Positions 11,202-30,104 of a DNA stretch of 49,270 bases are shown here, in pieces. The position numbers and the translations under genes were made by a program. Origin of the DNA: Hoeflea sp. BAL378. Lineage in GTDB: Bacteria > Pseudomonadota > Alphaproteobacteria > Rhizobiales > Rhizobiaceae. The stretch is from positions 1-49,270 of the forward strand of contig NZ_JRJG01000078.1 of NCBI RefSeq assembly GCF_000759435.1. The letters run 5' to 3'. Every line of letters starts with the position of its first letter. Positions within the stretch are counted from its first letter, which is position 1. The notes under the pieces were generated by a model. It saw only the letters and a list, made by a program, of their open reading frames with translations, was not told the origin of the DNA and searched no databases.

Positions 11202-11221
11202 TTGAATGGCTGTTCAGTCAA
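11202..11221. promoter_or_regulatory. BetI-like operator, site A
   Basis: TTGAATGGCTGTTCA (11202-11216) matches site B (17292-17306) at 12 of 15 bases. On the minus strand TTGACT (11221-11216) overlaps its edge and could be a -35 for the aminotransferase, although the expected -10 is poor. The site lies between the divergent aminotransferase and permease genes. Confidence 0.6.
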
Positions 11222-11379
11222 TTTGGCAGAAATACGGCTTGCATTCAACTCTCTTTTGGCCTCCAATTGCCCTCGACTTGCCCAGGGTCCGGTCGGAGAC
11301 AACCGGCAAAGACGGCAAGCTCCTGCAAGCCGGCCCGGGAACGCCGGCTCACACGGTCACGGTGAGGAAAACGCCATTG

Positions 11380-12297
11380 GAGACATCCGCCCCCACGATG
11401 CCCGCCGAGCGCGCCGCAGGCCTGGCGCCTGTCACGCGGTTCCTGCGCACGGAGACGGGCAAGGGCTGGCTCACCATCTCGCCGCCGCTCATCTACGCCA
11501 TGCTGCTGTTGATCGGGCCGATCATCGTCATCGTCGCCAACAGCTTCTGGTCGCAGGACTATCTCACCATCGACCGCACCTTCACGCTCGAGAACTACAG
11601 GGCGGCGCTGACCGAGCCGATCTACCGCGACCTCTTGATGCGCTCGCTGTTCGTCTCGGTCACCGTCGCCTTCGTCACCGTCATCCTCGCCTATCCGGTG
11701 GCCTGGTTCGTGTCCTTTCACGGCGGGCGCTACAAGGGCCTGTGGCTGTTCATCATCACGGTTCCCTTCTGGTCGGGCTACCTGCTGCGGATCCTGTCGT
11801 GGAAGGTGATCCTCGGCTACAAGGGCGTGCTCAACGAGACCCTGCTCTATCTCGGCGTCATCGCCGAGCCGCTGAGTTCACTCATCTACAATGTCAACGC
11901 CGTCGTCATCACGCTGGCCCACAGTTGGGCGGCCTTCGCCATCCTGCCGCTGTTCGTCTCGCTCGAGAAGCTCGACCGCTCGCTGCTCGAGGCCGCGGCC
12001 GATCTCGGCGACGGCCCGGTGCGCCGGTTCCTCAGGATCACGCTGCCGCTGACCATGCCCGGCATCATCGCCGCGCTGATGATCGTCATGATCCCGACCG
12101 TCGGCGACTATGTCACGCCCAAGCTCGTCGGCGGCAAGGACGGCGTCATGATCGCCAACGCCATCCAGGTGCAGTTCGGCAAGGCGTCGAACTGGCCGCT
12201 GGGTGCCGCACTCGCGGTCAGCACCATGGTCATCGTCTCGATGGTCGCCGGCGCCATCGTGCTGCTGCTGGCCGGTCTGAAAAGGCTGCTCAAATGA
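11380..12297 (+). CDS. ABC transporter permease, PotB type
   Basis: A polytopic inner-membrane subunit of a spermidine/putrescine-type importer, 305 aa from the chosen start. Six hydrophobic segments are visible and the coupling-helix EAA motif reads LLEAAADLGDGPVRRFLRITLPLTMPG. The open frame extends back to 11206, but that covers the operator. I prefer TTG at 11380, which has GAGGA eight bases upstream; ATG at 11398 is the alternative. The gene overlaps the second permease by 4 nt. The operon has two permeases and an ATPase but no receptor; the likely receptor is the convergent gene at 14561. Pot-family systems carry polyamines, opines and other amines, fitting the BetI-like control. Confidence 0.87.
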   Translation, partial: ETSAPTMPAERAAGLAPVTRFLRTETGKGWLTISPPLIYAMLLLIGPIIVIVANSFWSQDYLTIDRTFTLENYRAALTEPIYRDLLMRSLFVSVTVAFVTVILAYPVAWFVSFHGGRYKGLWLFIITVPFWSGYLLRILSWKVILGYKGVLNETLLYLGVIAEPLSSLIYNVNAVVITLAHSWAAFAILPLFVSLEKLDRSLLEAAADLGDGPVRRFLRITLPLTMPGIIAALMIVMIPTVGDYVTPKLVGGKDGVMIANAIQVQFGKASNWPLGAALAVSTMVIVSMVAGAIVLLLAGLKRLLK

Positions 12298-13100
12298 GCG
12301 CGCTCTCCGCCTCCCGGCGCATCCTGTCCGCCTATGTGATCCTCTACGTGGCGATCCTCTATTTCCCGGTGCTGCTGCTGCCGGTGTTCTCCTTCAACGA
12401 TTCGGCCACGCCGAAGCTGCCTTTGGCGGGCTTCACCTTCAAATGGTACGAGAGCCTCGCCGGCAACGCGGCCATGCAGGGGGCGGCCTGGAACTCGCTG
12501 GTCGTCGGCGTCAGCGCCGCGGTGCTCAGCACTGTCCTGGGCATCTGCGCCGCCCGCGCCATCACCCGCCACCGCTTCCGCGGCCTGGGGGCGGCGAGCA
12601 GCCTGATCATGGCGCCGCTGATCCTGCCCGAAATCATCATCGCCATCTCGCTGCTGGTGGTCATGCTCGGGCTCGGGCTGCAACTGTCGCTGGTCACCGT
12701 GATCCTCGGGCATCTGCTCATCTGCGTGCCCTATTCGGTCACCGTGCTGGTCTCGGGCTTCGAGGGCTTCGATCCGAGCATGGAGGAGGCCTCGCGCGAC
12801 CTTGGCGAGACCTCCTTCGGCACGCTGAGGCGGGTGACGCTGCCGATGCTGGCGCCGTCGATCGTCTCGAGCCTGCTGGTCACCTTCACCATTTCGCTGG
12901 ACGAGTTCATTCTCGCCTTTTTCCTGAGCGGCACCGAGCCGACGCTGCCGGTCTATATCTGGGGCCAGTTGCGCTTCGCGGCGAAGCTTCCGAACGTGCT
13001 GGCGCTCGGATCCATCCTGATTGCCGCCTCGCTGATACTGCTCACCGCCGCCGAACTGTTCCGCCGCCGAGCCGAACGCAAGATGGAGCTCCGCCCATGA
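12294..13100 (+). CDS. ABC transporter permease, PotC type
   Basis: A 268-residue permease with six hydrophobic segments. The EAA loop is MEEASRDLGETSFGTLRRVTLPMLAPS and the segment ISLDEFILAFFLSG is characteristic of PotC-like subunits. ATG 12294 overlaps the stop of the first permease (ATGA). Its own stop overlaps the start of an 18-codon frame that leads into the ATPase gene. It pairs with the 11380 product to make the heterodimeric channel. Confidence 0.9.
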   Translation: MSALSASRRILSAYVILYVAILYFPVLLLPVFSFNDSATPKLPLAGFTFKWYESLAGNAAMQGAAWNSLVVGVSAAVLSTVLGICAARAITRHRFRGLGAASSLIMAPLILPEIIIAISLLVVMLGLGLQLSLVTVILGHLLICVPYSVTVLVSGFEGFDPSMEEASRDLGETSFGTLRRVTLPMLAPSIVSSLLVTFTISLDEFILAFFLSGTEPTLPVYIWGQLRFAAKLPNVLALGSILIAASLILLTAAELFRRRAERKMELRP

Positions 13101-13149
13101 GGTTTGACACGACGCGCCCTGCCGACACGGCCAACGGGACGGGGGAAGC

Positions 13150-13153
<4 letters not shown>
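13097..13153 (+). CDS. 18-codon mini-ORF linking permease and ATPase genes
   Basis: The frame MRFDTTRPADTANGTGEA starts at ATG 13097, overlapping the permease stop as ATGA, and stops at TGA 13151-13153, overlapping the ATPase start as ATGA. The ATPase also has its own GGGGGAAG ribosome site inside this frame. It may act only as a translational relay; there is no evidence that the peptide has a function. It could equally be chance. Confidence 0.3.
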
Positions 13154-14238
<1,085 letters not shown>

Positions 14239-14356
14239 GCCGCGAGGCCACCTTTCATGCCCATGAGAAAGGCGCCGCATGAATGGCGCCTGAGAGAGCT
14301 GACAAACCCCGCAACTTCGACCACTTGTCGTTTAGTGCTGGCTATCCCTCGACCCC

Positions 14357-14493
14357 CGTCATGCCGGACTTGATCCGGCATCCAGCGCGATCAAGTCCTT
14401 GATCGCGAAAGACTCTTTCACGGCGCCGACGCGCCGTGGCTGGATTCCGGCGCGGGGGCCGGAATGACGGAGGACATGGCTCCGTCATTCCGG
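14357..14493. repeat. Palindromic intergenic repeat element between convergent genes
   Basis: The 322-base gap between the ATPase and receptor genes holds nested inverted repeats. The outer arms are CGTCATGCCGG (14357) and CCGGAATGACG (ending 14469). Inside is GCGATCAAG-TC-CTTGATCGC (14387-14406). At the right is a perfect 14-bp stem CCGGAATGACGGAG (14459-14472) / CTCCGTCATTCCGG (14480-14493) with a 7-base loop. The 'GTCATGCCGGACTTGATCC' wording is, as I recall, a dispersed repeat of rhizobial genomes. It may double as a bidirectional terminator. The remaining bases of the gap show nothing clear. Confidence 0.7.
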
Positions 14494-14560
14494 GCAGGGC
14501 TTATCAGCAGTCCGAAGACGCCACATGGCGCCTTTTCCCGTTTCGCAGGACCGGCAACGA

Positions 14561-15643
14561 TCAATACCCGGCCTTGATCTTCTCGAATTCGGCGATCATC
14601 TTCTGCTTGAGTTCCACCGGAACCGGCGACTGGAACAGCGTCTTGTCGACGAACGAGGCGAGGTCGTCATAGCCGGCGCCCTTGAGCGTTTCCGCGTCGA
14701 TGGCGTCCATGCCCTTGGCGTTGCCGTGGCCGTAGCCCCATTCGGACACGATGTAGGAGGACACCGCCGGATCGAGCGTGGCGTTGATGTAGTCGTAGGC
14801 CTTGTCCTCGCTGCCTTCGCCGTCCTTGAGCAGCACATAGCCGCAGACCCAGGTCGACAGGCCTTCGTCGGTGTCCCTCTTGATGGCGACGGGCACGCCG
14901 TCGGCCTGCAGCGTGGTCGCGGTCTCGTTCCACGCCCAGGCGAGGTCGACTTCCTCGCCGGCAATCGCCTGGCTCAGCTCGGTGTTGTCGGTCCAGTAGA
15001 GCCGCACGTTCTTGTGCACGTCGCGCAGGAAGGCCGAAGCCTCCTCGAACTGCTTGTCCGTCATCTTGGTCCAGTCGGTGAGACCGATGGCGAGCGAGGC
15101 CAGCGCATAGGCGTCGTCGACATTGTCGCCGATCGACACCCGGTCCTTGAACTTCGGATCGGCGAACGCCTTGAGCGATTTGACCTCGGCCTCCTCGACC
15201 TTGTCGGTGCGGTAGGTGACGGCGGTGTTGCCCCATTCGAATGGCACCAGCCAGGCCTTGCCGTCGGCGGTGGTCATCAGGTCGGTCATCGACTTGAAGC
15301 CGGGCATGATGTTGTCCCACTCGGGGATCTTCGCGGTGTCGAGCGGCTTGAGCAGGCCGGCATCGCGCCATTTGCCCACGCTTTGCGAGCAGGGATGCGC
15401 CACATCGGCCCTGAAGCCGGTGCGAAGCTTCTGGAAGGCCTCCTCCTCGTCGCCGAAGAACGCGAAGGTCGGGGACTCGCCGTGCTTGGCGACATAGGCC
15501 GGGTGGAATGCGGGATCCTCATAGCCGGCCCAGTCGAACACGGTGAGCTGGCCGTCGGCGGCCTGTGCGGCCATCGGGGCAGCGCCGAGCGCGAGCGCCA
15601 CGGCGAAACCGGAGATCAGTCCCCTCGTTGATTTTTTCTGCAT
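14561..15643 (-). CDS. ABC transporter substrate-binding protein, PotD/PotF type
   Basis: A 360-residue periplasmic receptor with signal peptide MQKKSTRGLISGFAVALALGAAPMAAQA before ADGQLTVFDWAGYE. The latter is the typical start of a mature PotD-like protein. Ligand-site aromatics such as FDWAGYEDP, VPFEWGNTAVTYR and DLAWAWNETA fit an amine ligand held by aromatic and acidic side chains. Start 15643 has GGAGGAGAACACCA upstream. It is the third gene of the methyltransferase-TetR-receptor operon and is convergent with the receptor-less permease operon at 11380-14238, so the two presumably form one transporter. Ligand class is inferred. Confidence 0.9.
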   Translation of the reverse strand: MQKKSTRGLISGFAVALALGAAPMAAQAADGQLTVFDWAGYEDPAFHPAYVAKHGESPTFAFFGDEEEAFQKLRTGFRADVAHPCSQSVGKWRDAGLLKPLDTAKIPEWDNIMPGFKSMTDLMTTADGKAWLVPFEWGNTAVTYRTDKVEEAEVKSLKAFADPKFKDRVSIGDNVDDAYALASLAIGLTDWTKMTDKQFEEASAFLRDVHKNVRLYWTDNTELSQAIAGEEVDLAWAWNETATTLQADGVPVAIKRDTDEGLSTWVCGYVLLKDGEGSEDKAYDYINATLDPAVSSYIVSEWGYGHGNAKGMDAIDAETLKGAGYDDLASFVDKTLFQSPVPVELKQKMIAEFEKIKAGY

Positions 15644-15655
15644 TGGTGTTCTCCT

Positions 15656-16384
15656 CTATTGGTCTTCTGCTTTGATCGCGAGCGGTGTTCCGCCCGCGGC
15701 GAAATGCCTGGGGAATATCGTGCACAGCGCATCGAGCACGACACCGAGCGCCGCTTCGCGCTTGTAGCCGCGGCCGAACAGCATCATCCTGAGCCACAGG
15801 CCTTCCTGCATGGCGTAGATCGCATCCGCCGTGCTCTGCGGATCGAAGGCGTAGCCGCCTTCCACCTTGGCCTTCAGGCAGATCGAGGCCAGCATGGCGC
15901 GGTACTTGGCGTCGCGGTCCCAGGCCATCTCCTGGTAGGCGGGCTTGGAGCGCGATTCGGTGATCAGCGCGAACCAGGCGGCAAGCTTGCGGTGGGTGCA
16001 GATCTTCCTGTCGAGATCGGCCGTCACCATGGCGAGCAGTTGCGAGGCGGTGTCGGGCGCGGCCTTCTGCACCATCGCCTGCCAGTTGGCGGTGTACTCG
16101 TCCTGCAGGAACTTGATCGTCTCGGACAGAAGGTTGTCCTTGCTGGTGAAGTGAAAGTTGACGATGCCGCGCGACAGTCCGGCGCCGTCGGCCACATCGG
16201 CCAGCGTGGTGGCCGCATAGCCGCGCTTGGCGAGCGAATCGATGGTGGCGTTGATCAGTTGTTCGCGGCGCAGCGCCTTGGGCTCGCGGCGGCGCGCCGC
16301 CTCCGTGGCGCGGGTCGCCGGCGTGTCGTCGTCGGGAGGGGGAATCTCGTCCAGGGAATTCTTCCTTTCGGGATGGGCGCTCAT
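15656..16384 (-). CDS. TetR-family regulator, BetI-like (1)
   Basis: A 242-residue repressor-type protein. An extended polar N-terminal arm (about 38 residues, Pro/Asp/Arg-rich) precedes the HTH: LINATIDSLAKRGYAATTLADVADGAGLSRGIVNFHFTSKDNLL. The C-terminal domain resembles BetI (the KLAAWFALITESRSKPAYQE region). BetI senses choline. The ATG at 16384 overlaps the methyltransferase stop (ATGA), and 12 bases separate it from the receptor gene. The operon promoter region carries site B, the best match to the putative BetI box, so autoregulation is likely. Whether this or the second regulator at 17504 binds the other sites cannot be told from sequence. Confidence 0.88.
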   Translation of the reverse strand: MSAHPERKNSLDEIPPPDDDTPATRATEAARRREPKALRREQLINATIDSLAKRGYAATTLADVADGAGLSRGIVNFHFTSKDNLLSETIKFLQDEYTANWQAMVQKAAPDTASQLLAMVTADLDRKICTHRKLAAWFALITESRSKPAYQEMAWDRDAKYRAMLASICLKAKVEGGYAFDPQSTADAIYAMQEGLWLRMMLFGRGYKREAALGVVLDALCTIFPRHFAAGGTPLAIKAEDQ

Positions 16385-17217
16385 GCCGCGGGCCTTGCGC
16401 CGAACACATGGGTCGGGCAGTGCTCGCCGCTGTCGAGCACCGTCTGCATGGCGCTCCAGGTCCTGATGTTCTTGTCGACATAATCCGCGCCGACGGCCTC
16501 GGCGACGGATGCATAGAGCGGCCCCGTGAGCCGCTCGAGCTCGCCGCGCGCGACCTCGCGGTACCATTCGTTGCGGTTGACGGTGCGGATGTCGACGAAG
16601 CCCGCCTGCGCCATCGCCCTCTCGTAGCGCGCGGCCGAGGCCATGCCGAAGCTCAGGCCTTCGGCGGCGAGATAGGCGCGCATTGCCTCGGACGGCGCGC
16701 CGTCATGGGAGGTCAGCCAGTCGCTCGCGGCAAACCGCCCGCCGGGCCTGAGCAGGCGGAAGATGTCCCTGAACAAGGTCTCCTTGTCGGAGACGTGGAT
16801 CAGCGCATCCTTGGAAAAGACGATGTCGAAGCTCTCGACGGGAAAGGGCAGCGGCCCCGGCTCGCTGCGCACGAAACGCGCGATTCCGTCGAGCCCCTGC
16901 TCCCGGGCGCGCCTGGTCGCGAGATCCACGACCGGCTGCTCGACATCGTAGCCGACGATTTTGGCAGGCTCATATTCCCGCGCCAGGAACAGGGTAATGC
17001 CGCCCGAGCCGCAGCCGATGTCGAGCACCCGCTTGCCGGCAAAATCGACATCCGCGACCACGCGGCGGACCTCGTCCGGCCCGCCCGGCGACAGGAACCC
17101 CTCGCCCCACAAGGCTTCCAGGAAGCGGATCGCCGTGTCGTCATATTCCGGCGCGGCCTCGTCCGCGGCCGATCCGGGGGGCGCCTCTGATGTCGAATCG
17201 TCAATGCCGTCTGTCAT
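16381..17217 (-). CDS. Class I SAM-dependent methyltransferase
   Basis: A 278-residue protein with the Rossmann SAM motif VLDIGCGSGGITLFLA (near residues 63-78), acidic loop YDVEQ, the DIVFSKDALIHV motif and LLRPGGRF. The overall pattern resembles phosphoethanolamine/glycine-sarcosine N-methyltransferases, with a C-terminal extension after the core; small-molecule N-methylation is plausible but unproven. It is the first gene of an operon with a BetI-like TetR and a Pot-type receptor. A methyltransferase in a gene set that otherwise looks like demethylation is odd: it may remethylate a product, act on the inducer, or make an osmoprotectant. Start at ATG 17217; GAGGAA lies 11 bases upstream. 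Confidence 0.85.
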   Translation of the reverse strand: MTDGIDDSTSEAPPGSAADEAAPEYDDTAIRFLEALWGEGFLSPGGPDEVRRVVADVDFAGKRVLDIGCGSGGITLFLAREYEPAKIVGYDVEQPVVDLATRRAREQGLDGIARFVRSEPGPLPFPVESFDIVFSKDALIHVSDKETLFRDIFRLLRPGGRFAASDWLTSHDGAPSEAMRAYLAAEGLSFGMASAARYERAMAQAGFVDIRTVNRNEWYREVARGELERLTGPLYASVAEAVGADYVDKNIRTWSAMQTVLDSGEHCPTHVFGARPAA

Positions 17218-17291
17218 GATGGAACGGGTTCCTCACTCAGTCGCTCGTGCCGAATTATTGGCGCAACGGGCGCATATTGCAACACGTTTGT

Positions 17292-17306
17292 TGAACGTTC
17301 ATTCAA
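17292..17306 (-). promoter_or_regulatory. BetI-like operator, site B
   Basis: On the minus strand TTGAATGAACGTTCA (17306-17292), containing the perfect 10-bp palindrome TGAACGTTCA. This is the copy closest to the BetI box of E. coli as I remember it. It lies about 75 bases before the methyltransferase-TetR-receptor operon. The rest of the 286-base gap (17307-17503) shows nothing else I can support. Confidence 0.68.
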
Positions 17307-17503
17307 TAGTGGGGTGAGCGGCGTCCCCGGCAAGGTGACATAAGGGACCTGTGCTGAGCGCTTTTCGGGGGACGTCAGCCAAGCCCCGGCGCCGGTCCGA
17401 CGCGACCCGCGCCAAGCCCTTCGCGCGGTCGCGCGCATCCCCGGATCAGCATTTCGGGTGACCCGCCCGGCCGCGACACTCCGGAAGGAAGTGCGGCGTG
17501 ACC

Positions 17504-18124
17504 TCAGATGCGGCCGGCATGGTGCGGCAGCAGCAGCCGCAGATGCGCATGAGCCTTGTCGAGCGCCTCGGTGCGGGTGATCGGCTGGCTCTGGATATGG
17601 ATCTGCAGCCACAATCCGTCGGTAAACGCATCGATGGAATCGGTCAGCAGTTCCGGGTCGGGACCGCCGGTCGTCTCCACCAGCTCGCGGCAGCAGGCGA
17701 GCATCGCCTGATGGCGGGCGTCCTCGGCCTCCACGCAGATCTTGTTGTAGAGCGGCTGCGCGCCGGCCTCGCCCCAGAACGAGAACCACAGCGCCAGCTT
17801 TTTGCGGCTGCAGATCGACGGGCTGAAATCGGCGCCGATCAGGCCGAGGATCCGGTCGAGCGGATCGGGCGAGGCGAAGGCCGCGCGCCAGGCCTGCTCG
17901 TATTCCTGCAACAGCCGCGACAGGGTCTCGGTGAGGAGCCCATCCTTGGACTTGAAGTGGAACACCAGAGCGCCCTGCGACACGCCCGCCGTGGCCGATA
18001 CATTAGCGAAGGTGGTGCCGGAGATGCCATGCCGCGCCACCACGTCGACGACGGCATCGATCATCCGCGCCTGGGTGCGCAGGCTGGTGGGCGAGATCTT
18101 GCTGGTATCGGCTGGCTGCGACAT
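17504..18124 (-). CDS. TetR-family regulator, BetI-like (2)
   Basis: A 206-residue protein. The HTH is in MIDAVVDVVARHGISGTTFANVSATAGVSQGALVFHFKSKDGLL. The ligand domain again has the BetI-like KKLALWFSFWGEAGAQPLYN segment, parallel to KLAAWFALITESRSKPAYQ in the first regulator. The two proteins are clearly paralogous in architecture. It is divergent from the FAD-oxidoreductase/GcvT operon, with operator site C in the 199-base gap near that operon, so it is the obvious candidate regulator for it. Start ATG 18124 (MSQPADTSKIS) lacks a strong ribosome site. Confidence 0.88.
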   Translation of the reverse strand: MSQPADTSKISPTSLRTQARMIDAVVDVVARHGISGTTFANVSATAGVSQGALVFHFKSKDGLLTETLSRLLQEYEQAWRAAFASPDPLDRILGLIGADFSPSICSRKKLALWFSFWGEAGAQPLYNKICVEAEDARHQAMLACCRELVETTGGPDPELLTDSIDAFTDGLWLQIHIQSQPITRTEALDKAHAHLRLLLPHHAGRI

Positions 18125-18268: not shown

Positions 18269-18297
18269 TTGACTGAACGCTCAGTTTATTCTAGCCT
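18269..18297 (+). promoter_or_regulatory. Promoter with BetI-like operator, site C
   Basis: TTGACT (18269-18274), a 17-base spacer and TAGCCT (18292-18297) precede the FAD-oxidoreductase operon. The spacer contains ACTGAACGCTCAGT (18273-18286 region), a near-palindrome that matches the site consensus at 11 of 15 bases (18274-18288, minus orientation). An operator between -35 and -10 would block polymerase. The -10 is weak. Confidence 0.58.
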
Positions 18298-18323
18298 TGG
18301 ATTTTACCAATCCGGAACTCGCC

Positions 18324-19928
18324 ATGAAATATGACGCGATCATCGTAGGAGCAGGCCACAACGGCCTCACCGCCGCCTGCTTCATGGCCCGGGCCGGCCT
18401 GAAGACCGTCATCGTCGAGAAGGAGGACCATGTCGGCGGCGCCGCGGTCAGCCTGTCGCTGACGCCGGGCTGGACCTATTCGAACTGCTCCTATGTCTGC
18501 TCCCTGCTCCGCCCGGAGATCATCCGGGCGCTGGAACTGCCCAAGCACGGGCTGCAGGTGATCCCCTACGAGGGCGGCGCCGTGTTTGATTCCAAGGGCG
18601 ACTATTTCGCCTACATGTCCGACCATGACGCGCTGCGCCGCGAGTTGATCCGCCATTCGCCGCGCGACGCCGACGGCTACGAGCGCTATTCCCGCGCGGT
18701 GATGCGCCAGTGCAAGTTCATCAAGCCGCTGCTGTTGCGTACCGCGCCCGATCCCGCCTCGATGAAGCCGCGCGACATTTGCGAGCTGCTCTACATCCTC
18801 AAGCGCTTCCACAATCTCGGCCCGCGTGAGATGGCCGAGACCGTGCGCTTCTGGACCATGTCGATCGCCGAGTATCTCGACCAGTATTTCGAGACCCCGA
18901 TGATCAAGGCCTATATCGCCGGCTCCGGCATCATCGGCACGGGCCTGGGCCCCTACTCGCCCGGCACGGCTTACGTGCTGCTGCACCACTACATGGGCGA
19001 GGTCGACGGCGCCATCGGCGCCTGGGGCTTCGCCCGCGGCGGCATGGGCTCCATCACCCAGGCCATGGCGCGCTCGTTCGAGGCTTCCGGCGGCGAGATC
19101 CGCATGGGCTCCGGCCTCGACCATTTCACCGTCCGCGACGGCAAGGTCCGCGGCGTCGTGCTCGAGAACGGCGACGAACTCACGGCCGAAACGGTCGTGT
19201 CCGGCATGGATGTGCGCCGCACCTTCGTCGACCACACCGACGAGAAGGAATTGCCCGCCGATTTCGTCAAGGGCGTCAAGCGCTACCGCTTCCGCGGCTC
19301 GTCCGGAAAACTCAACATCGCGCTCGACGGCATGCCCACATTCACCGGCGCGCCGAAGGACGCCTCGTTCCTTCGCGGCGACCTTCATTTCCTCGACGAC
19401 ATGGAGGAGATCGAGCGCGCCTATGACGACTGGAAGGACGGCAAGTGGTCGGCAAGCCCCTATGTCGATTTCCTGATCCCGACCCAGATCGATCCGACCA
19501 TGGCCCCGCCCGGCAAGCATTACGCCACGATCTTCGTCCAATATGCGCCCTACGAACTCGCCAATGGTGAGTGGAACGACGCCAACCGCGAGGCCTTCGC
19601 CGAGACGGTGATCTCGAAGATCGAGCGGCACAGCCGAGATTTCCGCAAGCTGATCGTCCACAAGGAAATCCGTAGCCCGAAGGACATCGAGGATCAGGTG
19701 GGCCTCACCGAAGGCAACATCTTCCAGGGCGAGCTCACCTTCGACCAGTTGCTGTTCAACCGCCCGGTGCCCGGATACGCGCAATACCGCTCGCCGATCA
19801 AGGGGCTCTACATGTGCGGATCCTCCACCCATCCCGGCGGCGGCGTCATGGGCGCTCCCGGCGCCAATGCCGCGCGCGAGGTGCTGAGCGACCTCGGCCA
19901 CAAGATCGACATGGGATTCTCCGCATGA
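18324..19928 (+). CDS. FAD-dependent oxidoreductase, CrtI/PYROXD2 type (1)
   Basis: A 534-residue flavoprotein. The N-terminal dinucleotide fold is MKYDAIIVGAGHNGLTAACF (GxGxxG at 9-14) with acidic VEKEDHVGG. The C-terminal FAD motif is GLYMCGSSTHPGGGVMGAPGANAA. This is the phytoene-desaturase-like/PYROXD2 group of amine-oxidase-fold proteins. The frame extends to 18297, but ATG 18324 begins the conserved fold. It is first in an operon with a second such protein (ATGA overlap), a GcvT-family protein and a 77-aa protein. In bacteria without carotenoid genes nearby such proteins often have unknown substrates; oxidation of a C-N bond is my guess from the partner gene. Controlled by site C. Confidence 0.85.
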   Translation: MKYDAIIVGAGHNGLTAACFMARAGLKTVIVEKEDHVGGAAVSLSLTPGWTYSNCSYVCSLLRPEIIRALELPKHGLQVIPYEGGAVFDSKGDYFAYMSDHDALRRELIRHSPRDADGYERYSRAVMRQCKFIKPLLLRTAPDPASMKPRDICELLYILKRFHNLGPREMAETVRFWTMSIAEYLDQYFETPMIKAYIAGSGIIGTGLGPYSPGTAYVLLHHYMGEVDGAIGAWGFARGGMGSITQAMARSFEASGGEIRMGSGLDHFTVRDGKVRGVVLENGDELTAETVVSGMDVRRTFVDHTDEKELPADFVKGVKRYRFRGSSGKLNIALDGMPTFTGAPKDASFLRGDLHFLDDMEEIERAYDDWKDGKWSASPYVDFLIPTQIDPTMAPPGKHYATIFVQYAPYELANGEWNDANREAFAETVISKIERHSRDFRKLIVHKEIRSPKDIEDQVGLTEGNIFQGELTFDQLLFNRPVPGYAQYRSPIKGLYMCGSSTHPGGGVMGAPGANAAREVLSDLGHKIDMGFSA

Positions 19929-21436
19929 GCCCGCGCTACGATGCCATCCTCATCGGCGCCGGCCACAACGGCCTGGTCGCCGCGGCCACGCTTGCTCGCA
20001 AGGGCAGGAAGGTGCTGGTGCTCGAGGCCCGCGATCATCCCGGCGGCATGCTGGGCGACCCGGCGTTCCGCGTTGCCCCCCTGCCCTACGCGCTGCGCCC
20101 GGAAATCGCCAAGGCGCTGCAGCTCGACCAGACCATGCTCTACAAGGCGAAGCCGCTCGATGTGCTGAGCTTCGGCGCCGACGGGCCGCCGCTGCGGGTC
20201 GCGGGCGGACTGGCGACCGGTGTCGACATCGCCACCGCCGAGGCCTATGCCGCACTGTACGCCCGGCTCGGCCGCCAGGCGAAGGCGCTTGGCGCCATGC
20301 TGCTTGAGACTCCGCCAAGCCTCGGCAAGGCGAATCTCAGCGAGATGGCCGGCTTCGCCCGCATGGCGCTGAAGATGCGCCTGCTCGGCAAGACGGAAAT
20401 GCGCGACCTCCTGCGCATCATTCTGTCGAACGCCTGGGACCTGCTCAACGACGAGATCGGCGACGGGCCGCTCGCGGGCCTCCTCGCCCTGGACGCCACG
20501 CTCGGCGGCGCCATGGGGCCGCGCTCGCCCGGCACTGTGCTGACGCTGCTCTACCGCATGGCGTCGCATTCGCCGCACGGCCACGGGCTGAGGCTCATGC
20601 CGCAAGGCAGTCCCGACGCGCTGGTCACGGCGCTGGCCGACTGCGTCAAGGCCGCGGGCGGCGAGATCCGCACCGGCGCGCCGGTCGAACGCATCCTGGT
20701 CGAGGGCGACCGCGCGGCCGGCGTGCGGCTGGCCTCCGGGGAAGAGATCACGGCCCCGCTGGTGCTCTCCAACGCCTCACCGAAGACCACGCTGATCACG
20801 CTGCTGGGCGTCGCCCATCTCGACGGCGAATTCGTCCGCCGTTGCCGCAGCATGGCGTCGAAGGGCATGGTCTCCCGCCTCGATTTCGACGTCGCCGAAC
20901 CGCCGGCAGTGCGCTGCGGCGGCGCGCTCCTTTCCGGCCAGCGGCTGGTTGTTGCACCCTCGATGCAGGCGATCGAAACCGCTTTCAACGCCGCCAAATA
21001 CCGCAACCTGCCCGATCGCCCGGCGCTCGAAGCCGTCTATGACGGCGCAACGAGACGCCTGTCGGTCAGCGCCCAGTTCACGCCCTACGACCTCGCCGGC
21101 GGCTGGACCGACGAGGCCAAGGCGAAGCTTTCCGCCTCCGTCCTCGCCGTGCTGGAGGAGGCGCTGCCCGGAATCGCCTCGACCGTGACCGGGTCCCGCG
21201 TCATGTCGCCCGCCGACATAGAGGCCGGCTATGGCGCGGCCGGCGGGCACTGGCACCACGGCGAATTGCGCGTCGACCAGTTGCTGATGCTCAGGCCCTT
21301 CGACGGCGCCGCGCGCTACCGCATGCCGGTCGCGGGCCTCTATCTCTGCGGCGCGGGCGCCCATCCCGGCGGCGACATTTCCGGCGCCGCAGGCTTCAAC
21401 GCGGCCCGCGCCGCCCTTCGCGACGGGGGACACTGA
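19925..21436 (+). CDS. FAD-dependent oxidoreductase, CrtI/PYROXD2 type (2)
   Basis: A 503-residue paralogue of the preceding protein. The N-terminal fold is MSPRYDAILIGAGHNGLVAAATLA with LEARDHPGG, and the C-terminal FAD motif is GLYLCGAGAHPGGDISGAAGFNAARA. Aligned landmarks (GPRSPGT/GPYSPGT, GGEIRTG/GGEIRMG, FTPYDLAGGWTD/YAPYELANGEWND) show tandem duplication and divergence. It is shorter in the middle than the first copy. ATG 19925 overlaps the previous stop by 4 nt, suggesting equimolar synthesis and perhaps a heterodimer. Two bases separate it from the GcvT-family gene. Substrate unknown. Confidence 0.85.
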   Translation: MSPRYDAILIGAGHNGLVAAATLARKGRKVLVLEARDHPGGMLGDPAFRVAPLPYALRPEIAKALQLDQTMLYKAKPLDVLSFGADGPPLRVAGGLATGVDIATAEAYAALYARLGRQAKALGAMLLETPPSLGKANLSEMAGFARMALKMRLLGKTEMRDLLRIILSNAWDLLNDEIGDGPLAGLLALDATLGGAMGPRSPGTVLTLLYRMASHSPHGHGLRLMPQGSPDALVTALADCVKAAGGEIRTGAPVERILVEGDRAAGVRLASGEEITAPLVLSNASPKTTLITLLGVAHLDGEFVRRCRSMASKGMVSRLDFDVAEPPAVRCGGALLSGQRLVVAPSMQAIETAFNAAKYRNLPDRPALEAVYDGATRRLSVSAQFTPYDLAGGWTDEAKAKLSASVLAVLEEALPGIASTVTGSRVMSPADIEAGYGAAGGHWHHGELRVDQLLMLRPFDGAARYRMPVAGLYLCGAGAHPGGDISGAAGFNAARAALRDGGH

Positions 21437-21437
21437 C

Positions 21438-22643
21438 ATGCAAGCCACCGCAACATCCGCCCCGCTCGTCCATCTGGGCCTCGAGCCCGGCCCGTTTCAC
21501 GAGCGCCTCGTCGCCCACAACCGCCAGCGGGCCTGGATGAACTGGATGGGCTACGCCTCGCCCTCCGTGCTCGACACGGTCGAGTTCGAGTATTTCGCCA
21601 TCCGCAACCAGTCGACGCTGTTCGACATTTCGCCGATGTGCAAATACGCCATCACCGGCCCGGACGCGGAAAGCGTGGTCAACCGGCTGGTGACGCGCGA
21701 CATCAGAAAGCTCAAGCCCGGCCGCGTCGCCTATTGCATCTGGTGCGACGAGGACGGCCAGGTCGTCGATGACGGCACCGTGTTCCGCTATTCCGCGACC
21801 GAGTTCCGCCTCTGCTGCCAGGAGCCGCAGCTCTCCTGGCTCGAGGACATCGCCTGGGGCTTCGATGTCGAGATCCGCGACGTTACCCGCGAGATCGCCG
21901 GCCTGGCGCTGCAGGGCCCGACCTCCTGCGCCCTGCTCAAGGACCTGGGGCTCGCGGGAATCGAGACACTGAAGCCCTTCGGCATCGCCGGCTACACCAT
22001 CGCCGGCGCCGAGGTCAGCATCTCGCGTACCGGCTTCACCGGCGATCTCGGCTACGAGCTGTGGATGGAGCCCGCCGATGCGCTCGCGGTCTGGGACGCG
22101 CTGACGGCGGCGGGCAAGCTCCGCGGCCTGCGCGTCATCGGCTACGAGGCGCTGGAGATGGCCCGGATCGAGGCCGGCTTCCTGCTGCCGAAGGTCGATT
22201 TCCTCTCCGCCCAGACGGTACTCAGGGCCGATCGCGCCAGCACGCCCTATGAATTGGGGCTCGACTGGCTGGTGGCGCTCGACAAGCCGCATTTCAACGG
22301 CCGCCGCGCGCTGCTGGAGCTGTCCAAGAAGCCCCCGCGCCGAAAACTGGTGGCGATCGAGATCGAGCGCGACAAGCCGGCCCACAATGCGCTGGTCTAT
22401 CACAGGAAGACCCGCGAGGTGGGCATGGTGACCTCGGCCTTGTGGTCGCCCACCTGCAAGCGCAACATCGCCTATGCCTGGCTCGACGCGCCCTACGGCC
22501 AGACGGTCGCCGGCGACCTCTGGGTCGAGATCTACCTGCAGAAGGAAATCCGCTGGCAGCGGCGCATGGCGCGGTGCCAGCCGGTGGACAAGCCCTTCTT
22601 CGTCCATCCCCGCCGGTCGGCCACGCCGCCCGCCGATTACTGA
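21438..22643 (+). CDS. GcvT-family aminomethyltransferase-like protein
   Basis: A 401-residue protein of the GcvT/YgfZ/DmdA superfamily, which in most members transfers a one-carbon unit to tetrahydrofolate. Typical elements are LFDISPMCKYAITGPDAESVVNRLVTRDI, the conserved Asp in GQVVDDGTVFRY, and the folate-contacting RTGFTGDLGYELWM. The C-terminal barrel domain (SPTCKRNIAYAWLD) is present. A stand-alone GcvT protein next to two flavoproteins parallels dimethylglycine/sarcosine dehydrogenases, where the flavin and GcvT domains are fused. It suggests oxidation of an N-methyl (or S/O-methyl) group with capture of formaldehyde by folate. Start 21438 has GGGGGA upstream. Confidence 0.87.
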   Translation: MQATATSAPLVHLGLEPGPFHERLVAHNRQRAWMNWMGYASPSVLDTVEFEYFAIRNQSTLFDISPMCKYAITGPDAESVVNRLVTRDIRKLKPGRVAYCIWCDEDGQVVDDGTVFRYSATEFRLCCQEPQLSWLEDIAWGFDVEIRDVTREIAGLALQGPTSCALLKDLGLAGIETLKPFGIAGYTIAGAEVSISRTGFTGDLGYELWMEPADALAVWDALTAAGKLRGLRVIGYEALEMARIEAGFLLPKVDFLSAQTVLRADRASTPYELGLDWLVALDKPHFNGRRALLELSKKPPRRKLVAIEIERDKPAHNALVYHRKTREVGMVTSALWSPTCKRNIAYAWLDAPYGQTVAGDLWVEIYLQKEIRWQRRMARCQPVDKPFFVHPRRSATPPADY

Positions 22644-23136: not shown

Positions 23137-23151
23137 GATCCATTCATTCAA
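23137..23151 (-). promoter_or_regulatory. Degenerate BetI-like half-site before NitT/TauT operon
   Basis: The plus strand ends TTCATTCAA (23143-23151), identical to nine bases of site B; overall 10 of 15 positions match. It lies 63 bases before the receptor gene. Only one half is well conserved, so this may be chance. A possible TTGATT (23066-23071) lies further upstream with no convincing -10; the rest of the 280-base gap shows nothing clear. Confidence 0.25.
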
Positions 23152-23213
23152 ACCGGCGAACTGCCGGACCGCAGAGAAGACAACAGACGACGATCGATAA
23201 CCGGGAGGATCTC

Positions 23214-24248: not shown

Positions 24249-24272
24249 GCGCGAGACCCGACAAGCGAGACA

Positions 24273-24302
24273 GCGGCCCGCGGCGTCATCGTCGCGGACC
24301 GC
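24273..24302 (+). other. Intercistronic hairpin after NitT/TauT-type receptor gene
   Basis: GCGGCCCGCG (24273-24282) pairs with CGCGGACCGC (24293-24302), one mismatch, 10-base loop, no T-run. Placed like the hairpin after the TRAP receptor gene, it may stabilise the receptor mRNA or reduce expression of downstream genes. Confidence 0.5.
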
Positions 24303-24330
24303 CCGGAAATGACAACCAGGATACCCGGCC

Positions 24331-25090
<760 letters not shown>

Positions 25091-25101
<11 letters not shown>

Positions 25102-25951: not shown

Positions 25952-25973
25952 TCACAGCTCTCACCAAACGAAA

Positions 25974-26005
25974 CGGGCCGGACCCACGTCGATGGATCCG
26001 GCCCG
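25974..26005. terminator. Bidirectional terminator between convergent transporter operons
   Basis: CGGGCCGGA (25974-25982) pairs perfectly with TCCGGCCCG (25997-26005) around a 14-base loop, in the 76-base gap between two convergent operons. The minus-strand side is followed by a T-rich tract. Confidence 0.7.
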
Positions 26006-26027
26006 CCTGTCATCCGTTCAGCTCAGA

Positions 26028-27095
26028 TCAGGACTTGAGCTTGGTCCAGACCTTTTCGCGCAGGTCCTTCGACGCCGGCGAGCAGGCCTCGAAGGCGCGC
26101 AGCCTTTCATTGTACTCCTCGGGCGTATTCACCGCCGGGTCGTTCCTCAGGTCTTCCTTCAGGAATTCGCCCGAGCCCGACACCGCGTTGGAATAGCCGG
26201 TGTAGTTCGATGCGATCGCCGCCACTTCCGGCGACATCATCCAGTTGACGAAGGCCTTCGCCGCTTCCATGTTCGGCGCGTCCTTCGGGACCGCGATGAC
26301 GTCGGTCCAGAAGGTGGTGCCTTCCTTGGGATAGACATAGACCGCGTCCGGCTTCTTTTCCTTGACCCGGTGCGCGGCGCCGTTCCACTGCATGTGGACC
26401 GCCACTTCGCCCGCGATCATGCGGTCGATGGTGCCGTCATTGGAATAGAGCTTCACATGCGGCTTCTGGGCCATCAGCACGTCGAGGATCTTCTGCGCCT
26501 CGGCCGGGTCCTCGGTGCATTTGCTGACGCCGGTGTAATAGGCCGCCGCGTTCCAGACATCCGACATCTCGTTGAGCATGGCGATCTTGCCCTTCAGCTC
26601 GTCCTTGGGCTCGAACAGCTCCTTCCAGCTTTCCTCGAGCTTGCCGCCCGGCACCAGCGCGGGATCATAGGTGAAGCCGGTCGTGCCCCACATGTAGGGC
26701 GCGGAATATTCGCGCTTCTCATCGCCCGCCATGGTGGTAAACGCCGGCAGCAGGTTCTTGAAGTTCTCCATCTGGTTGACGTCGATCTTGGCGAGCAGGC
26801 CCTTCTCGACCATCACGCCGAGCGTGGTGCTGCCGGGAAAGATCACGTCATAGCCGCCGCCGCCGGCCTGCAGTTTGGCGAGCAGATCCTCTTCCGAGGC
26901 GTAATTGTCGACGCTGACCTTGGTGCCGGTTTCCTTCTCGAAGCGCTCCAGCAGTTCGGGCGCGAAATAGTTCGTCCAGTTGTAAAGATGCAGTTCACCC
27001 TCCGCCATCGCGCTGCCGCCGAATGCGGTGAGCGTGATCGCCGTGGCCACCAGCAGTTTGGCTGTATGCTTTCCTACCCTGTTGTTCCTGATCAT
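26028..27095 (-). CDS. ABC substrate-binding protein, PotD/PotF type (2)
   Basis: A 355-residue periplasmic receptor. From ATG 27095 (MIRNNRVGKHTAKLLVATAI) a signal peptide ends at SAMA before EGELHLYNWTNYF, the classic PotD start. Other landmarks are KLQAGGGGYDVIFPGS, APYMWGTTGFTYDP and VHMQWNGAAHRV, an aromatic-lined pocket for an amine. GGAG lies six bases upstream of the start. It is the last gene of a complete ATPase-permease-permease-receptor operon. The paralogue at 14561 shares the fold but is clearly different in sequence. Substrate class polyamine-like, exact ligand unknown. Confidence 0.92.
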   Translation of the reverse strand: MIRNNRVGKHTAKLLVATAITLTAFGGSAMAEGELHLYNWTNYFAPELLERFEKETGTKVSVDNYASEEDLLAKLQAGGGGYDVIFPGSTTLGVMVEKGLLAKIDVNQMENFKNLLPAFTTMAGDEKREYSAPYMWGTTGFTYDPALVPGGKLEESWKELFEPKDELKGKIAMLNEMSDVWNAAAYYTGVSKCTEDPAEAQKILDVLMAQKPHVKLYSNDGTIDRMIAGEVAVHMQWNGAAHRVKEKKPDAVYVYPKEGTTFWTDVIAVPKDAPNMEAAKAFVNWMMSPEVAAIASNYTGYSNAVSGSGEFLKEDLRNDPAVNTPEEYNERLRAFEACSPASKDLREKVWTKLKS

Positions 27096-27128
27096 GATGT
27101 TCTCCAATTGTGTGCGGGCGTTGGCGTC

Positions 27129-27962
27129 TCAATCGGGCCCGGTTTTCCGATTCTGATCCCGTCCCAGAAAGAGCGACAGGGAGACTAGAGAGAGCGACAA
27201 GAGCAGCATCAGCGAGGAGATCGCGTTGACCTCCGGCGTGACGCCGGTTCTCACCAGACCGAAGATGTAGATGGGCAGCGTGGTCGACCCCGCGCCGCCC
27301 AGGAAGAAGGTGGTGACGAAATCATCAAGCGAGATGATGAAGGCCAGCACCAGGCCCGAGAGAATGCCCGGAACCAGTTGCGGCAGCGTCACCCGCCAGA
27401 AGGCCCGCACCGGATTGGCGTAGAGGTCGGCAGCCGCCTCGCCGATCTTCGGGTCCATGCCTTCGAGCCGCGCCCGGATCGGCAGATAGGCAAACGGGAT
27501 GCAGAACACGATATGGCCGATGATCACCGTGCCGAGCCCGAAGGTGAAGCCGAGGCTCGCGAAGAACATCAGCGTCGCCACCGCCGGCACGATCTCGGGA
27601 ACCGTGATCGGCAGCGCGAAGACCGCGTTGATGCCGGCCTTGCCGAGGAAACGGTCGTTGCTCGCCATCCGCAGCGCCGCGAGCGTCGCGAGCGTCGTGG
27701 CGCTGACCGAAGCCACCGAGGCGATGATCAGCGAATTGGTCGCCGCCCCGACGATGTCGCGGTTGGCAAAGGCCACGCGGTACCAGTCAAGCGAGAACCC
27801 GGTCCAGACCGTCACCGTCCGGTTCTCGTTGAAGGACAGCGCGATCAGGATCAGGATCGGCAGATAGACATAGGCGAAGAACACCGCCGTTGCCGTGAAC
27901 AGCCCCGGCCAGTGCCGGACGTCGCCCGGGAAGGGCCGCGCGCGGAACGGGTTGAGCCTCAT
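27129..27962 (-). CDS. ABC permease, PotC type (2)
   Basis: A 277-residue permease with six hydrophobic segments, start ATG 27962 ([22 protein letters not shown]) overlapping the previous stop by 4 nt. The EAA loop is IGEAAADLYANPVRAFWRVTLPQLVPG, and FIISLDDFVTTFFLGG is the PotC signature. It forms the channel with the preceding permease; 33 bases separate it from the receptor gene. Confidence 0.92.
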   Translation of the reverse strand: MRLNPFRARPFPGDVRHWPGLFTATAVFFAYVYLPILILIALSFNENRTVTVWTGFSLDWYRVAFANRDIVGAATNSLIIASVASVSATTLATLAALRMASNDRFLGKAGINAVFALPITVPEIVPAVATLMFFASLGFTFGLGTVIIGHIVFCIPFAYLPIRARLEGMDPKIGEAAADLYANPVRAFWRVTLPQLVPGILSGLVLAFIISLDDFVTTFFLGGAGSTTLPIYIFGLVRTGVTPEVNAISSLMLLLSLSLVSLSLFLGRDQNRKTGPD

Positions 27963-28855
27963 TGCGATCCCTCCAGTTCGCCGCGGTAGCGCCGTGCGTA
28001 GAGCCCGAGCGAGATGAGTACCAGCAGGAGCAGGAACAGGCCGAGCGCCGCGCCGAACGGCCAGTTGCGCGCGCCGCCGAACTGGAAGCCGATCAGGTTG
28101 CCGATCATCAACGTCTTGCCGCCGCCGAGCAGCTCCGGCGTGATATAGGCGCCGAGCGCCGGCACGAACACCAGCACGCAGCCCGCGACGATGCCCGGAA
28201 AGGCGAGCGGCAGGATGATCCGGCGGATGGTCTGCCAGCGGGTGGCGTAGAGATCGAACGAGGCCTCGACCAGGCGGAGGTCGATCTTCTCGAGGCTCGC
28301 ATAGATCGGCAGCACCATGAAGGGCAGGAACGAATAGGTGAGCCCGACGGCGACCGCGAAGGAATTGTGCAAGAGCGGCAGCGGTTCGGAGATGACGCCG
28401 AGCCACAGCAGCACCGAATTGATGGTGCCGTGATCGCGCAACAACAGGATCCAGGCGTAGTTCCTGACCAGCAGGTTGGTCCAGAACGGCAGCGTCACCA
28501 TGAACACCAGCACCGCCTTCCACCTGGCGTTCCGCGTCGCCATGAACATGGCCACCGGCAGCCCGACGGCGAGCGAGATCGCCATGGTCAGGAACGACAG
28601 CCAGACCGAGCGCAGGATGATGGCCATGTAGTTGAAATTGAGCGCCAGCGTGCCGTCGAGTTCCCGCTCGAAGAACAGCCGGACATAGGCTTCCGGTGTG
28701 AACTGGTCCCACAGCACGCCGCCGGAATAGTCCCGCCCGCGGAACGAGATATAGGCCATCAGCGCCAGGGGAACGATCATGAACACGGTGATCGCCATCA
28801 GCGCCGGCCCGATCAGCAGGGCGCGGAACAGGATGGTCTTGCCCGCCCGGCTCAT
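27959..28855 (-). CDS. ABC permease, PotB type (2)
   Basis: A 298-residue permease, six hydrophobic segments plus an initial one near residues 10-33. The large periplasmic loop contains [17 protein letters not shown], typical of PotB. The EAA loop is [27 protein letters not shown]. It starts at ATG 28855 overlapping the ATPase stop (ATGA) and ends overlapping the next permease, so all three cytoplasmic and membrane parts are translationally coupled. Confidence 0.92.
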
Positions 28856-29973
28856 GACGGGTCGTCGGCCAGAACGGAGACGGAAGCCGCGTCGACCGAC
28901 CAGCCGACGTGATCGCCCTTGGCGAAGGACTGGATCTTCGCCGTGTTGTTCTGCGAGCGGGCGCGCAGTTCCAGCCCGTCGGCGAGCTTGAGGTGAAAGA
29001 TCGTGTCGGTGCCGTGATAGACGACGTTGGTCACCACCCCGGGCAAGGTGCCGGCCGAGGGCGCTGACAGGGCGATGCGCTCGGGACGGATCGCGAGCAC
29101 CGCGCGGCCGCCCTTGGCCGCCGCCGATGCGTCATCCGCCCTGAGCGTGCCGACGCCGGAGATGGCGTAGTCCTGCCCGCCCATTGCCTGCACGGGAACC
29201 AGGTTGATCTCGCCGATGAAGCCCGCGACGAAACGGTGCTGCGGCTTGTCGTAGATCTCGCGCGGCGTCCCTATTTGCAGGATCTCGCCGCCATTCATCA
29301 CCGCGATGCGGTCGGACATGGTCAGCGCCTCGTCCTGGTCGTGGGTCACGAACACGAAGGTGATGCCGGTGTCGGTCTGCAGCCGCTTGAGCTCGAGCTG
29401 CATGTCCTTGCGCAACTGCAGGTCCAGCGCCGACAGCGGCTCGTCGAGCAGCAGCACCTTGGGATGCGGCGCGAGCGCGCGGGCCAGCGCCACGCGCTGC
29501 TGCTGGCCGCCGGAAATCTGGGTAATGCGCCGGTCGGCCATGGATTCGAGCCGCACCAGCCGCAGCATGTCCTCCGTCACGCGCTTGATCTCGTCGCTTG
29601 GGCGGCCGAGCATCTCGAGCCCGAACGAGATGTTCTGGCTCACCGTCATGTGCGGAAACAGCGCGTAGTTCTGGAACACCGTGTTGACCGGGCGCTGATA
29701 GGGCGGCTTGGCCGAGAGATCCTCCCCGTCGAGCAGAACCGCCCCGGAAGTGGGCTGCTCGAAGCCCGCGATCAGCCGCAGCAGGGTCGTCTTGCCGCAG
29801 CCCGAGGGGCCGAGCAAGGTGAAGAACTCGTTCTTCCGGATGTCGACCGACACATCGTCCAGCGCCCGGAAGGCATGCGCGCCGCTTCCAAACACCTTGC
29901 TGAGCGACCGGACCGAGACCGCGCACTGGTCTTGCGCCGGGGAGAGAGTGGAAGATGGTGTCGATGTATTCAA
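28852..29973 (-). CDS. ABC ATP-binding protein, PotA type (2); TTG start preferred
   Basis: A 373-residue ATPase with Walker A GPSGCGKT (55-62 from the chosen start), Q-loop [11 protein letters not shown], signature ISGGQQQR, Walker B VLLLDEP, H-loop VTHDQDEA and a C-terminal TOBE domain. The open frame extends to 30057. ATG at 29997 has no properly spaced ribosome site, whereas TTG at 29973 has AAGGAG five bases upstream (29979-29984), so I take TTG. First gene of the second Pot-type operon, preceded by operator site D. Confidence 0.9.
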
Positions 29974-30075
29974 AGGCGCTCCTTGAAGACTCTGCATCTT
30001 TCCCGATCGCTCGCGACGAACTTCGCCTGCGGCTTGCAAGGCCTTGAGAAGATGCAATTTTCACCATTTTACCGG

Positions 30076-30104
30076 CAATTAGATATTGAATGATCGTTCA
30101 GCAA
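30076..30104 (-). promoter_or_regulatory. Promoter with BetI-like operator, site D
   Basis: On the minus strand TTGCTG (30104-30099), a 17-base spacer and TAATTG (30081-30076). Site D, TTGAATGATCGTTCA on the plus strand (30086-30100), fills the spacer and matches site B at 14 of 15 bases. The same arrangement (operator inside the spacer) is seen at site C. The leader to the ATPase start is about 95 bases. Confidence 0.65.

What the first reader, a model, noticed from the sequence alone, without database searches (positions are those of the whole stretch)
11202..30100. A BetI-box-like operator recurs at four promoters and defines one putative regulon
TTGAATGnnCGTTCA variants lie at 11202-11216 (+), 17292-17306 (-), 18274-18288 (-) and 30086-30100 (+). 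They match the best copy (site B) at 12, 15, 11 and 14 of 15 bases. Each is before an operon start: aminotransferase/PotBC-A, methyltransferase-TetR-PotD, FAD-FAD-GcvT, and PotA-B-C-D. At two of them the site fills the -35/-10 spacer. Two BetI-like TetR proteins are encoded inside the set. The motif resembles the E. coli BetI box as I remember it. A weaker copy (23137-23151) precedes the NitT/TauT operon. This links about 20 kb of otherwise unrelated-looking genes.
Basis: partly seen in the sequence, partly recalled or inferred. Interest (0 to 1): 0.8.

Follow-up and report, generated by a model that had tools for sequence, protein, structure and literature searches.

The report
Two-repressor regulon over N-methylamine-type island
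In the marine bacterium Hoeflea, a block of about 22 kb of uptake and breakdown genes carries strongly conserved DNA switches of two slightly different kinds, and comparison with relatives suggests that two neighbouring TetR-type regulators each own one kind.

Summary
The sites are real and beyond chance. In the 5.48 Mb genome only four places match TTGAATGNNCGTTCA with at most one mismatch, three of them in this contig. The sites recur at the same promoters in Hoeflea relatives. TTGAATGNNYGTTCA occurs in 12 of 12 Hoeflea genomes with the island's GcvT gene and 0 of 6 without.

Corrections. (1) Not BetI boxes: both TetRs score below the BetI cut-offs; the genome's BetI lies elsewhere with a different box. 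(2) Two operator classes, not one. Class 1, TGAA-N6-TTCA (A, B, D), goes with TetR1 (helix SRGIVNFHF). Class 2, TGA[G/C]-N6-CTCA, covers site C (better read on the + strand, 18269-18283) and an overlooked fifth site before a Rieske oxygenase (7967-7982); it goes with TetR2 (SQGxLVFHF). (3) The weak copy at 23137 is not conserved.

Where a site was found, FAD1 and Rieske promoters carry class 1 without TetR2 (one exception) and class 2 with it. Best reading: two regulators divide one catabolic island, TetR1 taking uptake and transamination, TetR2 the oxidoreductases. Binding, direction of control and inducer are unproven.

The parts
11202..11216 (+). Site A, class 1 operator TTGAATGGCTGTTCA, between the class-III aminotransferase (-) and PotB (+)
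   Evidence: 14/16 columns invariant in 7 Hoeflea; class 1 at the same place in Shinella L164 and Rhizobium L166
17292..17306 (-). Site B, class 1 operator TTGAATGAACGTTCA, before methyltransferase-TetR1-PotD
   Evidence: 16/16 columns invariant in 9 Hoeflea
18269..18283 (+). Site C, class 2 operator TTGACTGAACGCTCA, between TetR2 (-) and FAD1 (+)
   Evidence: 16/16 columns invariant in 10 Hoeflea; in the tally this promoter has class 2 in genomes with TetR2 type
30086..30100 (+). Site D, class 1 operator TTGAATGATCGTTCA, before PotABCD-2
   Evidence: 16/16 columns invariant in 8 Hoeflea
7967..7982 (+). Site R, newly found class 2 operator CTGAGCAATTGCTCAA, directly after the -10 of the Rieske gene promoter
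   Evidence: arms TGAG/CTCA invariant 8/8, centre 0/6, in 7 Hoeflea; also in G006
7938..7966 (+). Predicted promoter TTGACG-17-TATTTT of the Rieske gene
   Evidence: TTGAC invariant in 7 Hoeflea
17254..17282 (-). Predicted promoter TTGCAA-17-AATAAT downstream of site B
15656..16384 (-). TetR1 (TetR_N + TetR_C_6, recognition helix LSRGIVNFHF); start chosen by me at MSAHPERK, overlapping the methyltransferase stop
17504..18124 (-). TetR2 (TetR_N + TetR_C_6, recognition helix VSQGALVFHF)
   Evidence: other clade than TetR1
16381..17217 (-). SAM-dependent methyltransferase, first gene of the TetR1 operon
14561..15643 (-). PotD-like solute-binding protein 1
9736..11130 (-). Class-III aminotransferase; start placed by me at the conserved ATG
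11398..14238 (+). PotB (11398-12297), PotC (12294-13100), PotA (13150-14238)
   Evidence: PotB and PotA; PotC: reading frame, recurrence at this place in relatives; no family search was run on the right PotC frame
18324..21436 (+). Two CrtI-like FAD oxidoreductases (FAD1, FAD2)
   Evidence: FAD1
21438..22643 (+). GcvT-family protein; best solved-structure match is the TMAO demethylase
7997..9199 (+). Rieske oxygenase alpha subunit; carnitine and glycine betaine monooxygenase type
26028..30057 (-). PotABCD-2 transporter under site D; PotA start uncertain (TTG 30057 or ATG 29997)

Best explanation
The sites are operators of a local regulon split between two TetR-family regulators that lie in the island. 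TetR1 binds class 1 (TGAA-N6-TTCA) at A, B and D and so controls the aminotransferase, both Pot-type transporters and its own methyltransferase-TetR1-PotD operon. TetR2 binds class 2 (TGA[G/C]-N6-CTCA) at C and R and so controls itself, the FAD1-FAD2-GcvT operon and the Rieske oxygenase. Both probably repress and let go when a substrate or intermediate of the island binds. Shown: the sites, their conservation, their co-occurrence with the island, and the match between operator class and TetR recognition helix across genomes. Inferred: binding, repression, inducer, and the substrate (an N-methylated amine, guessed from Rieske + GcvT + aminotransferase + Pot transporters).
For: Three of 4 near-exact genome matches in one contig. 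TTGAATGNNYGTTCA in 12 of 12 Hoeflea genomes with the GcvT gene and 0 of 6 without; 31 of 32 places lie beside island genes. TetR1 orthologues in other genomes of the order: 18 of 29 neighbourhoods hold an exact TGAAYRNNYRTTCA outside the recognised genes; with one mismatch allowed 23 hits against 2.0 on average for 60 symmetric shuffles of the pattern (largest 21; none reaching 23). Shinella and Rhizobium plasmids carry class 1 at the Rieske, aminotransferase/PotB and TetR/FAD1 promoters. Class by regulator type in the stretches held: TetR1 type only, class 1 in 26 of 38 genomes; both types, both classes in 12 of 12; TetR2 type only, class 2 in 3 of 6 and class 1 in 0 of 6. FAD1 promoter: 16 class 1 and 1 class 2 without TetR2 type, 0 and 15 with it; Rieske promoter: 6 and 0, 0 and 8 (read by hand, tested). 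TetR2 groups with the G165 and Parasedimentitalea regulators that stand beside TTTGAGCGCTCAAA.
Against: No binding or expression data. Genomes are related, so the class counts are not independent. Types were assigned by the recognition helix: G396 and G072 were found with TetR2 and lie on its side of the tree, but have NFHF helices and were counted as TetR1 type. Classes 1 and 2 share a frame, and site A read on the other strand contains TTGACTGAAC as in site C; in G003 and G004 site A also fits the loose class 2 pattern, so cross-binding is possible. 12 of 38 TetR1-type-only genomes showed no class 1 site and 3 of 6 TetR2-type-only genomes no class 2 site in the stretch examined; 7 of 22 loci with the SRGIVNFHF helix had no exact site. 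TTTGAGCGCTCAAA has closer arms than sites C and R. B, C and D also hold the closer TGA-N4-TCA dyad, so the true half-site spacing is open. At B the predicted promoter lies downstream of the operator, so repression by occlusion is not obvious there.
Confidence: 0.68

Rival explanations
1. One regulator, TetR1, binds all sites A, B, C, D and R; TetR2 has another target or only fine-tunes site C.
For: All sites share one 16-bp frame, and where no TetR2 was found TetR1 is the candidate for the FAD1 and Rieske sites.
Against: C and R differ from class 1 at the same position of the half-site, in genomes with TetR2 type; G165, where the TetR1 search found nothing at E <= 1e-40, has a G/C-type site at the same two promoters.
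Confidence: 0.2
2. A true BetI regulon: the genome's choline-responsive BetI binds these sites.
For: Related half-site TTGA, BetI-like C-terminal domains, and an inner TGA-N4-TCA dyad in B, C and D.
Against: The true BetI lies on contig C9 with box TGATTGACTGGTCAATCA upstream; the pattern TGATTGACNNGTCAATCA with up to 3 mismatches has no place in this contig; both window TetRs score about 99 bits against a cut-off of 201.3.
Confidence: 0.04
3. Generic TetR-type palindromes, each serving only the gene beside it, with no shared regulon.
For: Similar palindromes stand beside other TetR genes of this genome (C132:22012, C16:90700, C105:33193).
Against: Sites A and D, and the Rieske sites in Shinella and Rhizobium, are not beside a TetR gene, yet follow the regulator present.
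Confidence: 0.08

Closest known systems
BetI1/BetI2 of Ruegeria pomeroyi DSS-3 (PMC12442346; passages seen)
   Same: Two TetR-family regulators with different boxes divide one catabolic cluster in an alphaproteobacterium.
   Different: Choline genes; the BetI1 box is ATTGACG*CGTCAAT with closer arms; here both proteins fall below the BetI cut-offs and the genes are a Rieske/FAD/GcvT/aminotransferase/Pot island.
BetI, TIGR03384 / PRK00767
   Same: BetI-type C-terminal domain TetR_C_6 with TetR_N; TTGA-type half-sites.
   Different: About 99 and 92 bits against cut-offs of 201.3 and 118; a different operator; a separate true BetI in the genome.
TMAO demethylase Tdm, GcvT-like part
   Same: Best solved-structure match of the island's GcvT protein.
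   Different: The island protein is 401 aa with only GcvT domains found; its substrate is unknown.

Membership tests
BetI (TIGR03384, PRK00767) | score over the curated cut-off | tested here: not met
   TetR1 99.2 and TetR2 99.7 bits against 201.3; 92.5 and 92.5 against 118
BetI (TIGR03384, PRK00767) | canonical betI box (ATTGACG*CGTCAAT type) at its promoters | tested here: not met
   ATTGACNNGTCAAT with up to 2 mismatches has no match in the window; the looser TTGANCGNTCAA with up to 2 mismatches has 11, among them the inner parts of B, C and D; the true BetI has a canonical-type box upstream
BetI (TIGR03384, PRK00767) | next to choline genes betAB or betT | tested here: not met
   none among the window proteins scanned; a few window ORFs were not scanned
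BetI (TIGR03384, PRK00767) | choline as inducer | not testable with these tools
   needs a binding assay
TetR family of regulators | TetR_N HTH over the gathering score | tested here: met
   47.2 and 40.0 bits against 24
Local TetR regulon | operator conserved at orthologous promoters and co-occurring with the regulator | tested here: met
   with the misses told in the Against line
Local TetR regulon | binding by the regulator | not testable with these tools
   needs EMSA or footprinting

The most novel reading that the evidence does not exclude
A traceable regulon split: when the TetR2 lineage shares an island with TetR1, the oxidoreductase promoters (FAD1 and Rieske) carry the TetR2-class operator while uptake and aminotransferase promoters keep the TetR1 class, so uptake and breakdown of one substrate may be tuned by separate sensors, perhaps of substrate and of intermediate. 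Whether the promoters changed class, or the TetR2 class was there first, is open.
Probability: 0.5. Interest if true: 0.6.

Novelty: new member of a known kind. Interest (0 to 1): 0.5.

Why it matters
It gives an uncharacterised island, found in Rhizobiaceae, other Hyphomicrobiales and Rhodobacterales, two regulators and a list of target promoters, which is a direct way to find its substrate. The match between one base pair of the half-site and the recognition helix across genomes is a compact natural data set on TetR operator specificity and on how two sensors share a pathway.

Tried and rejected
Rejected: the weak copy at 23137-23151 (not conserved); the '-' reading of site C; a BetI regulon; a loose motif count within the window as evidence. 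Paper searches for five operator sequences, TetR + Rieske + quaternary ammonium and others, TetR + trimethylamine and others and annotation names found 0 papers; homarine searches (1 paper), a Rieske/aminomethyltransferase/polyamine search and a Hoeflea/regulon/TetR search were seen as listings with abstract starts only and none is on this island by its title. The library holds open papers only, so absence from print is not shown. The substrate could not be identified. No structure was predicted.

Not counted in the tally: L024, L027, L030-L041, L044, L046-L056 (island fragments, gammaproteobacterial or distant loci, or second copies of genomes already counted), L143 and L150 (second copies of G049 and G040), and the TetR1-like loci L188-L190 and L192-L195. 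In one search L188 showed TTGATTGAACGTTCAATCAA, L193 a class 1-type site, L189 one hit of another spacing, the other four nothing. Eight of the 38 TetR1 matches got no locus and were not examined. In one search the gammaproteobacterial loci and Rhodobacterales loci L042 and L043 showed no convincing class 1 site. The class 2 pattern is loose: of its 5 hits in TetR1-type-only genomes four do not end in CTCA, and it also hits site A in G003 and G004. The class counts at FAD1 and Rieske were read by hand and entered; G006, read later, adds one more class 2 Rieske site and is not in those Rieske counts. In one search the third row of the TetR profile was a wrong reading frame of the BetI locus; the profile was used only to pick and trim TetR ORFs, and BetI was translated correctly from then on. 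The BetI row of the tree has a very long branch; its place is not used. One search compared the letter Y literally, so its printed mismatch counts are one too high for site A.
Full report
What was reported. Four TTGAATGnnCGTTCA-like sites at operon starts were read as one BetI-box-like operator. The sequences are there as stated. The window is a whole contig (C78) of a 5.48 Mb genome whose same-genus relatives match Hoeflea records.

Is it chance? The loose motif (up to 3 mismatches) is near background in the window: 12 matches against 7.5 expected. The tight motif is not. With at most 1 mismatch the genome has 4 places, 3 of them in this contig; the chance of 3 or more of 4 falling in 0.9% of the genome is about 3e-6 (a rough figure, as the motif was taken from these sites). 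The fourth place, C132:22012, lies between another TetR gene and a flavin monooxygenase-like gene (the monooxygenase name is my reading of the sequence). A looser palindrome with 1 mismatch has 21 places, 18 of them elsewhere, control 8, some beside other TetR genes, so the half-site type is common to several TetR operators.

Conservation. In Hoeflea relatives the same site variants stand at the same promoters. Invariant columns inside against outside the site: A 14/16 and 98/305, B 16/16 and 54/335, C 16/16 and 58/240, D 16/16 and 17/375. In the genus, TTGAATGNNYGTTCA occurs in 12 of 18 genomes, exactly those in which the island's GcvT gene was found at E <= 1e-60; one of the 12, G008, has a diverged island with TetR1 type only. 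31 of 32 places lie beside island genes, the exception being G013:C8:319021. Site A differs by its first base in G006 and G012 and so escaped that pattern; its 14-bp core is there. G011 shows no second Pot operon in the stretch held and no site D.

Which regulator? TetR1 orthologues were found in 35 of 397 genomes of the order (own included) at E <= 1e-40, 38 matches; 30 loci were returned, 29 of them not the window's own. Of these 29 neighbourhoods 18 hold an exact TGAAYRNNYRTTCA outside the recognised genes; with 1 mismatch there are 23 hits against a mean of 2.0 for 60 shuffled symmetric patterns, the largest 21. The recognition helix reads SRGIVNFHF in 22 of the 29, and 15 of these 22 have an exact site; of the other 7, 3 have one. 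TetR2 is rarer: 4 of 397 genomes at that E-value, own included.

Two operator classes. Sites A, B and D read TGAA-N6-TTCA. Site C, read on the + strand, is TGAC-N6-CTCA. A search for that form showed a fifth site, R (CTGAGCAATTGCTCAA, 7967-7982), just after a TTGACG-17-TATTTT promoter of the Rieske gene. In 7 Hoeflea its arms are invariant (8/8) while its centre is not (0/6), as expected of a dyad operator, though the whole site is only moderately better conserved than its surroundings (8/16 against 31/165, p 0.008). G006 has it too. TTYTGAGNNNNNNCTCAAA has one exact place in the genome, site R, and two further places with one mismatch. B, C and D also contain a closer dyad, TGA-N4-TCA, which A and R lack; I take the wider one as the operator because it is common to all five, but this is a judgement.

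Class follows regulator. Of 58 genomes or records tallied by recognition helix in the stretches held: TetR1 type only, 38, class 1 in 26 and a loose class 2 pattern in 5; both types, 12, both classes in 12; TetR2 type only, 6, class 2 in 3 and class 1 in 0; neither, 2, loose class 2 in 1. At the FAD1 promoter class 1/class 2 counts are 16/1 without TetR2 type and 0/15 with it; at the Rieske promoter 6/0 and 0/8. Eleven of the 15 TetR2-type genomes at FAD1 are Hoeflea, so these are few independent events: Hoeflea, a Phyllobacteriaceae MAG (L045), G165, and two genomes outside Hoeflea's order (Parasedimentitalea and G740). In the tree TetR2 groups with the regulators of G165, Parasedimentitalea, G740, G537 and G808 (99/92), away from TetR1; G165, Parasedimentitalea and G740 have TTTGAGCGCTCAAA in the TetR/FAD1 spacer, and G165 also has TTTGAGCGCTCAG before its Rieske gene. 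G537, G808 and G642 showed no class 2 site in the stretch held. G396 and G072 lie on the TetR2 side of the tree but have NFHF helices and were tallied as TetR1 type; G396 has a class 1 site.

Not BetI. Both TetRs carry TetR_N and TetR_C_6 but score 99 bits against BetI's cut-off of 201.3. The genome's BetI (C9, 228 bits) has TGATTGACTGGTCAATCA upstream, in line with the published BetI1 box ATTGACG*CGTCAAT of Ruegeria pomeroyi (PMC12442346, passages seen). That paper also describes two BetIs with different boxes dividing one cluster, the closest precedent for what is proposed here.

What the island does. Rieske oxygenase like carnitine monooxygenase, GcvT protein like the TMAO demethylase, two CrtI-like FAD proteins, class-III aminotransferase, methyltransferase and Pot-type transporters. 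Much of the set stands together in Shinella, Rhizobium and Parasedimentitalea plasmids. Catabolism of an N-methylated amine is the likeliest role; this is inference.

Mechanism. Site R covers the expected start of transcription; site D overlaps a weak -10 (TTGACA-17-AACGAT, by eye, not found by the scan) and site C a -35 and spacer (by eye, not found by the scan), which suits repression. At site B the promoter match lies downstream, so the mode there is open.

Noticed in passing
window 1875-7869: Second Rieske oxygenase (1875-3218), DmmA-like ferredoxin reductase (3229-4215), MarR regulator (4354-4866) and DctP plus TRAP genes; a conserved block around CATGAATTTTCATATA in the 4215-4354 spacer of 3 Hoeflea could be a MarR-type site.
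   Followed up: partly
window 37823-45693: Protocatechuate-type cluster: LysR regulator, protocatechuate dioxygenase beta, CoA transferases, thiolase, lyase, FAD-binding protein.
   Followed up: no
window 30357-35717: SLAC1-type channel gene and an RND efflux pump with HlyD-type adaptor.
   Followed up: no
L004:781-2915: Perfect palindrome TTGAACGATCGTTCAA between another TetR gene and a flavin monooxygenase-like gene: a likely separate self-operator.
   Followed up: partly
window 18324-19928: FAD1 is unusually conserved in close Hoeflea relatives (94-97% identity where FAD2 has 76-90%).
   Followed up: no
L165:10713, 19207, 25765: In Parasedimentitalea the same island carries TTTGAGCGCTCAA or a one-mismatch form at three places between genes.
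   Followed up: yes
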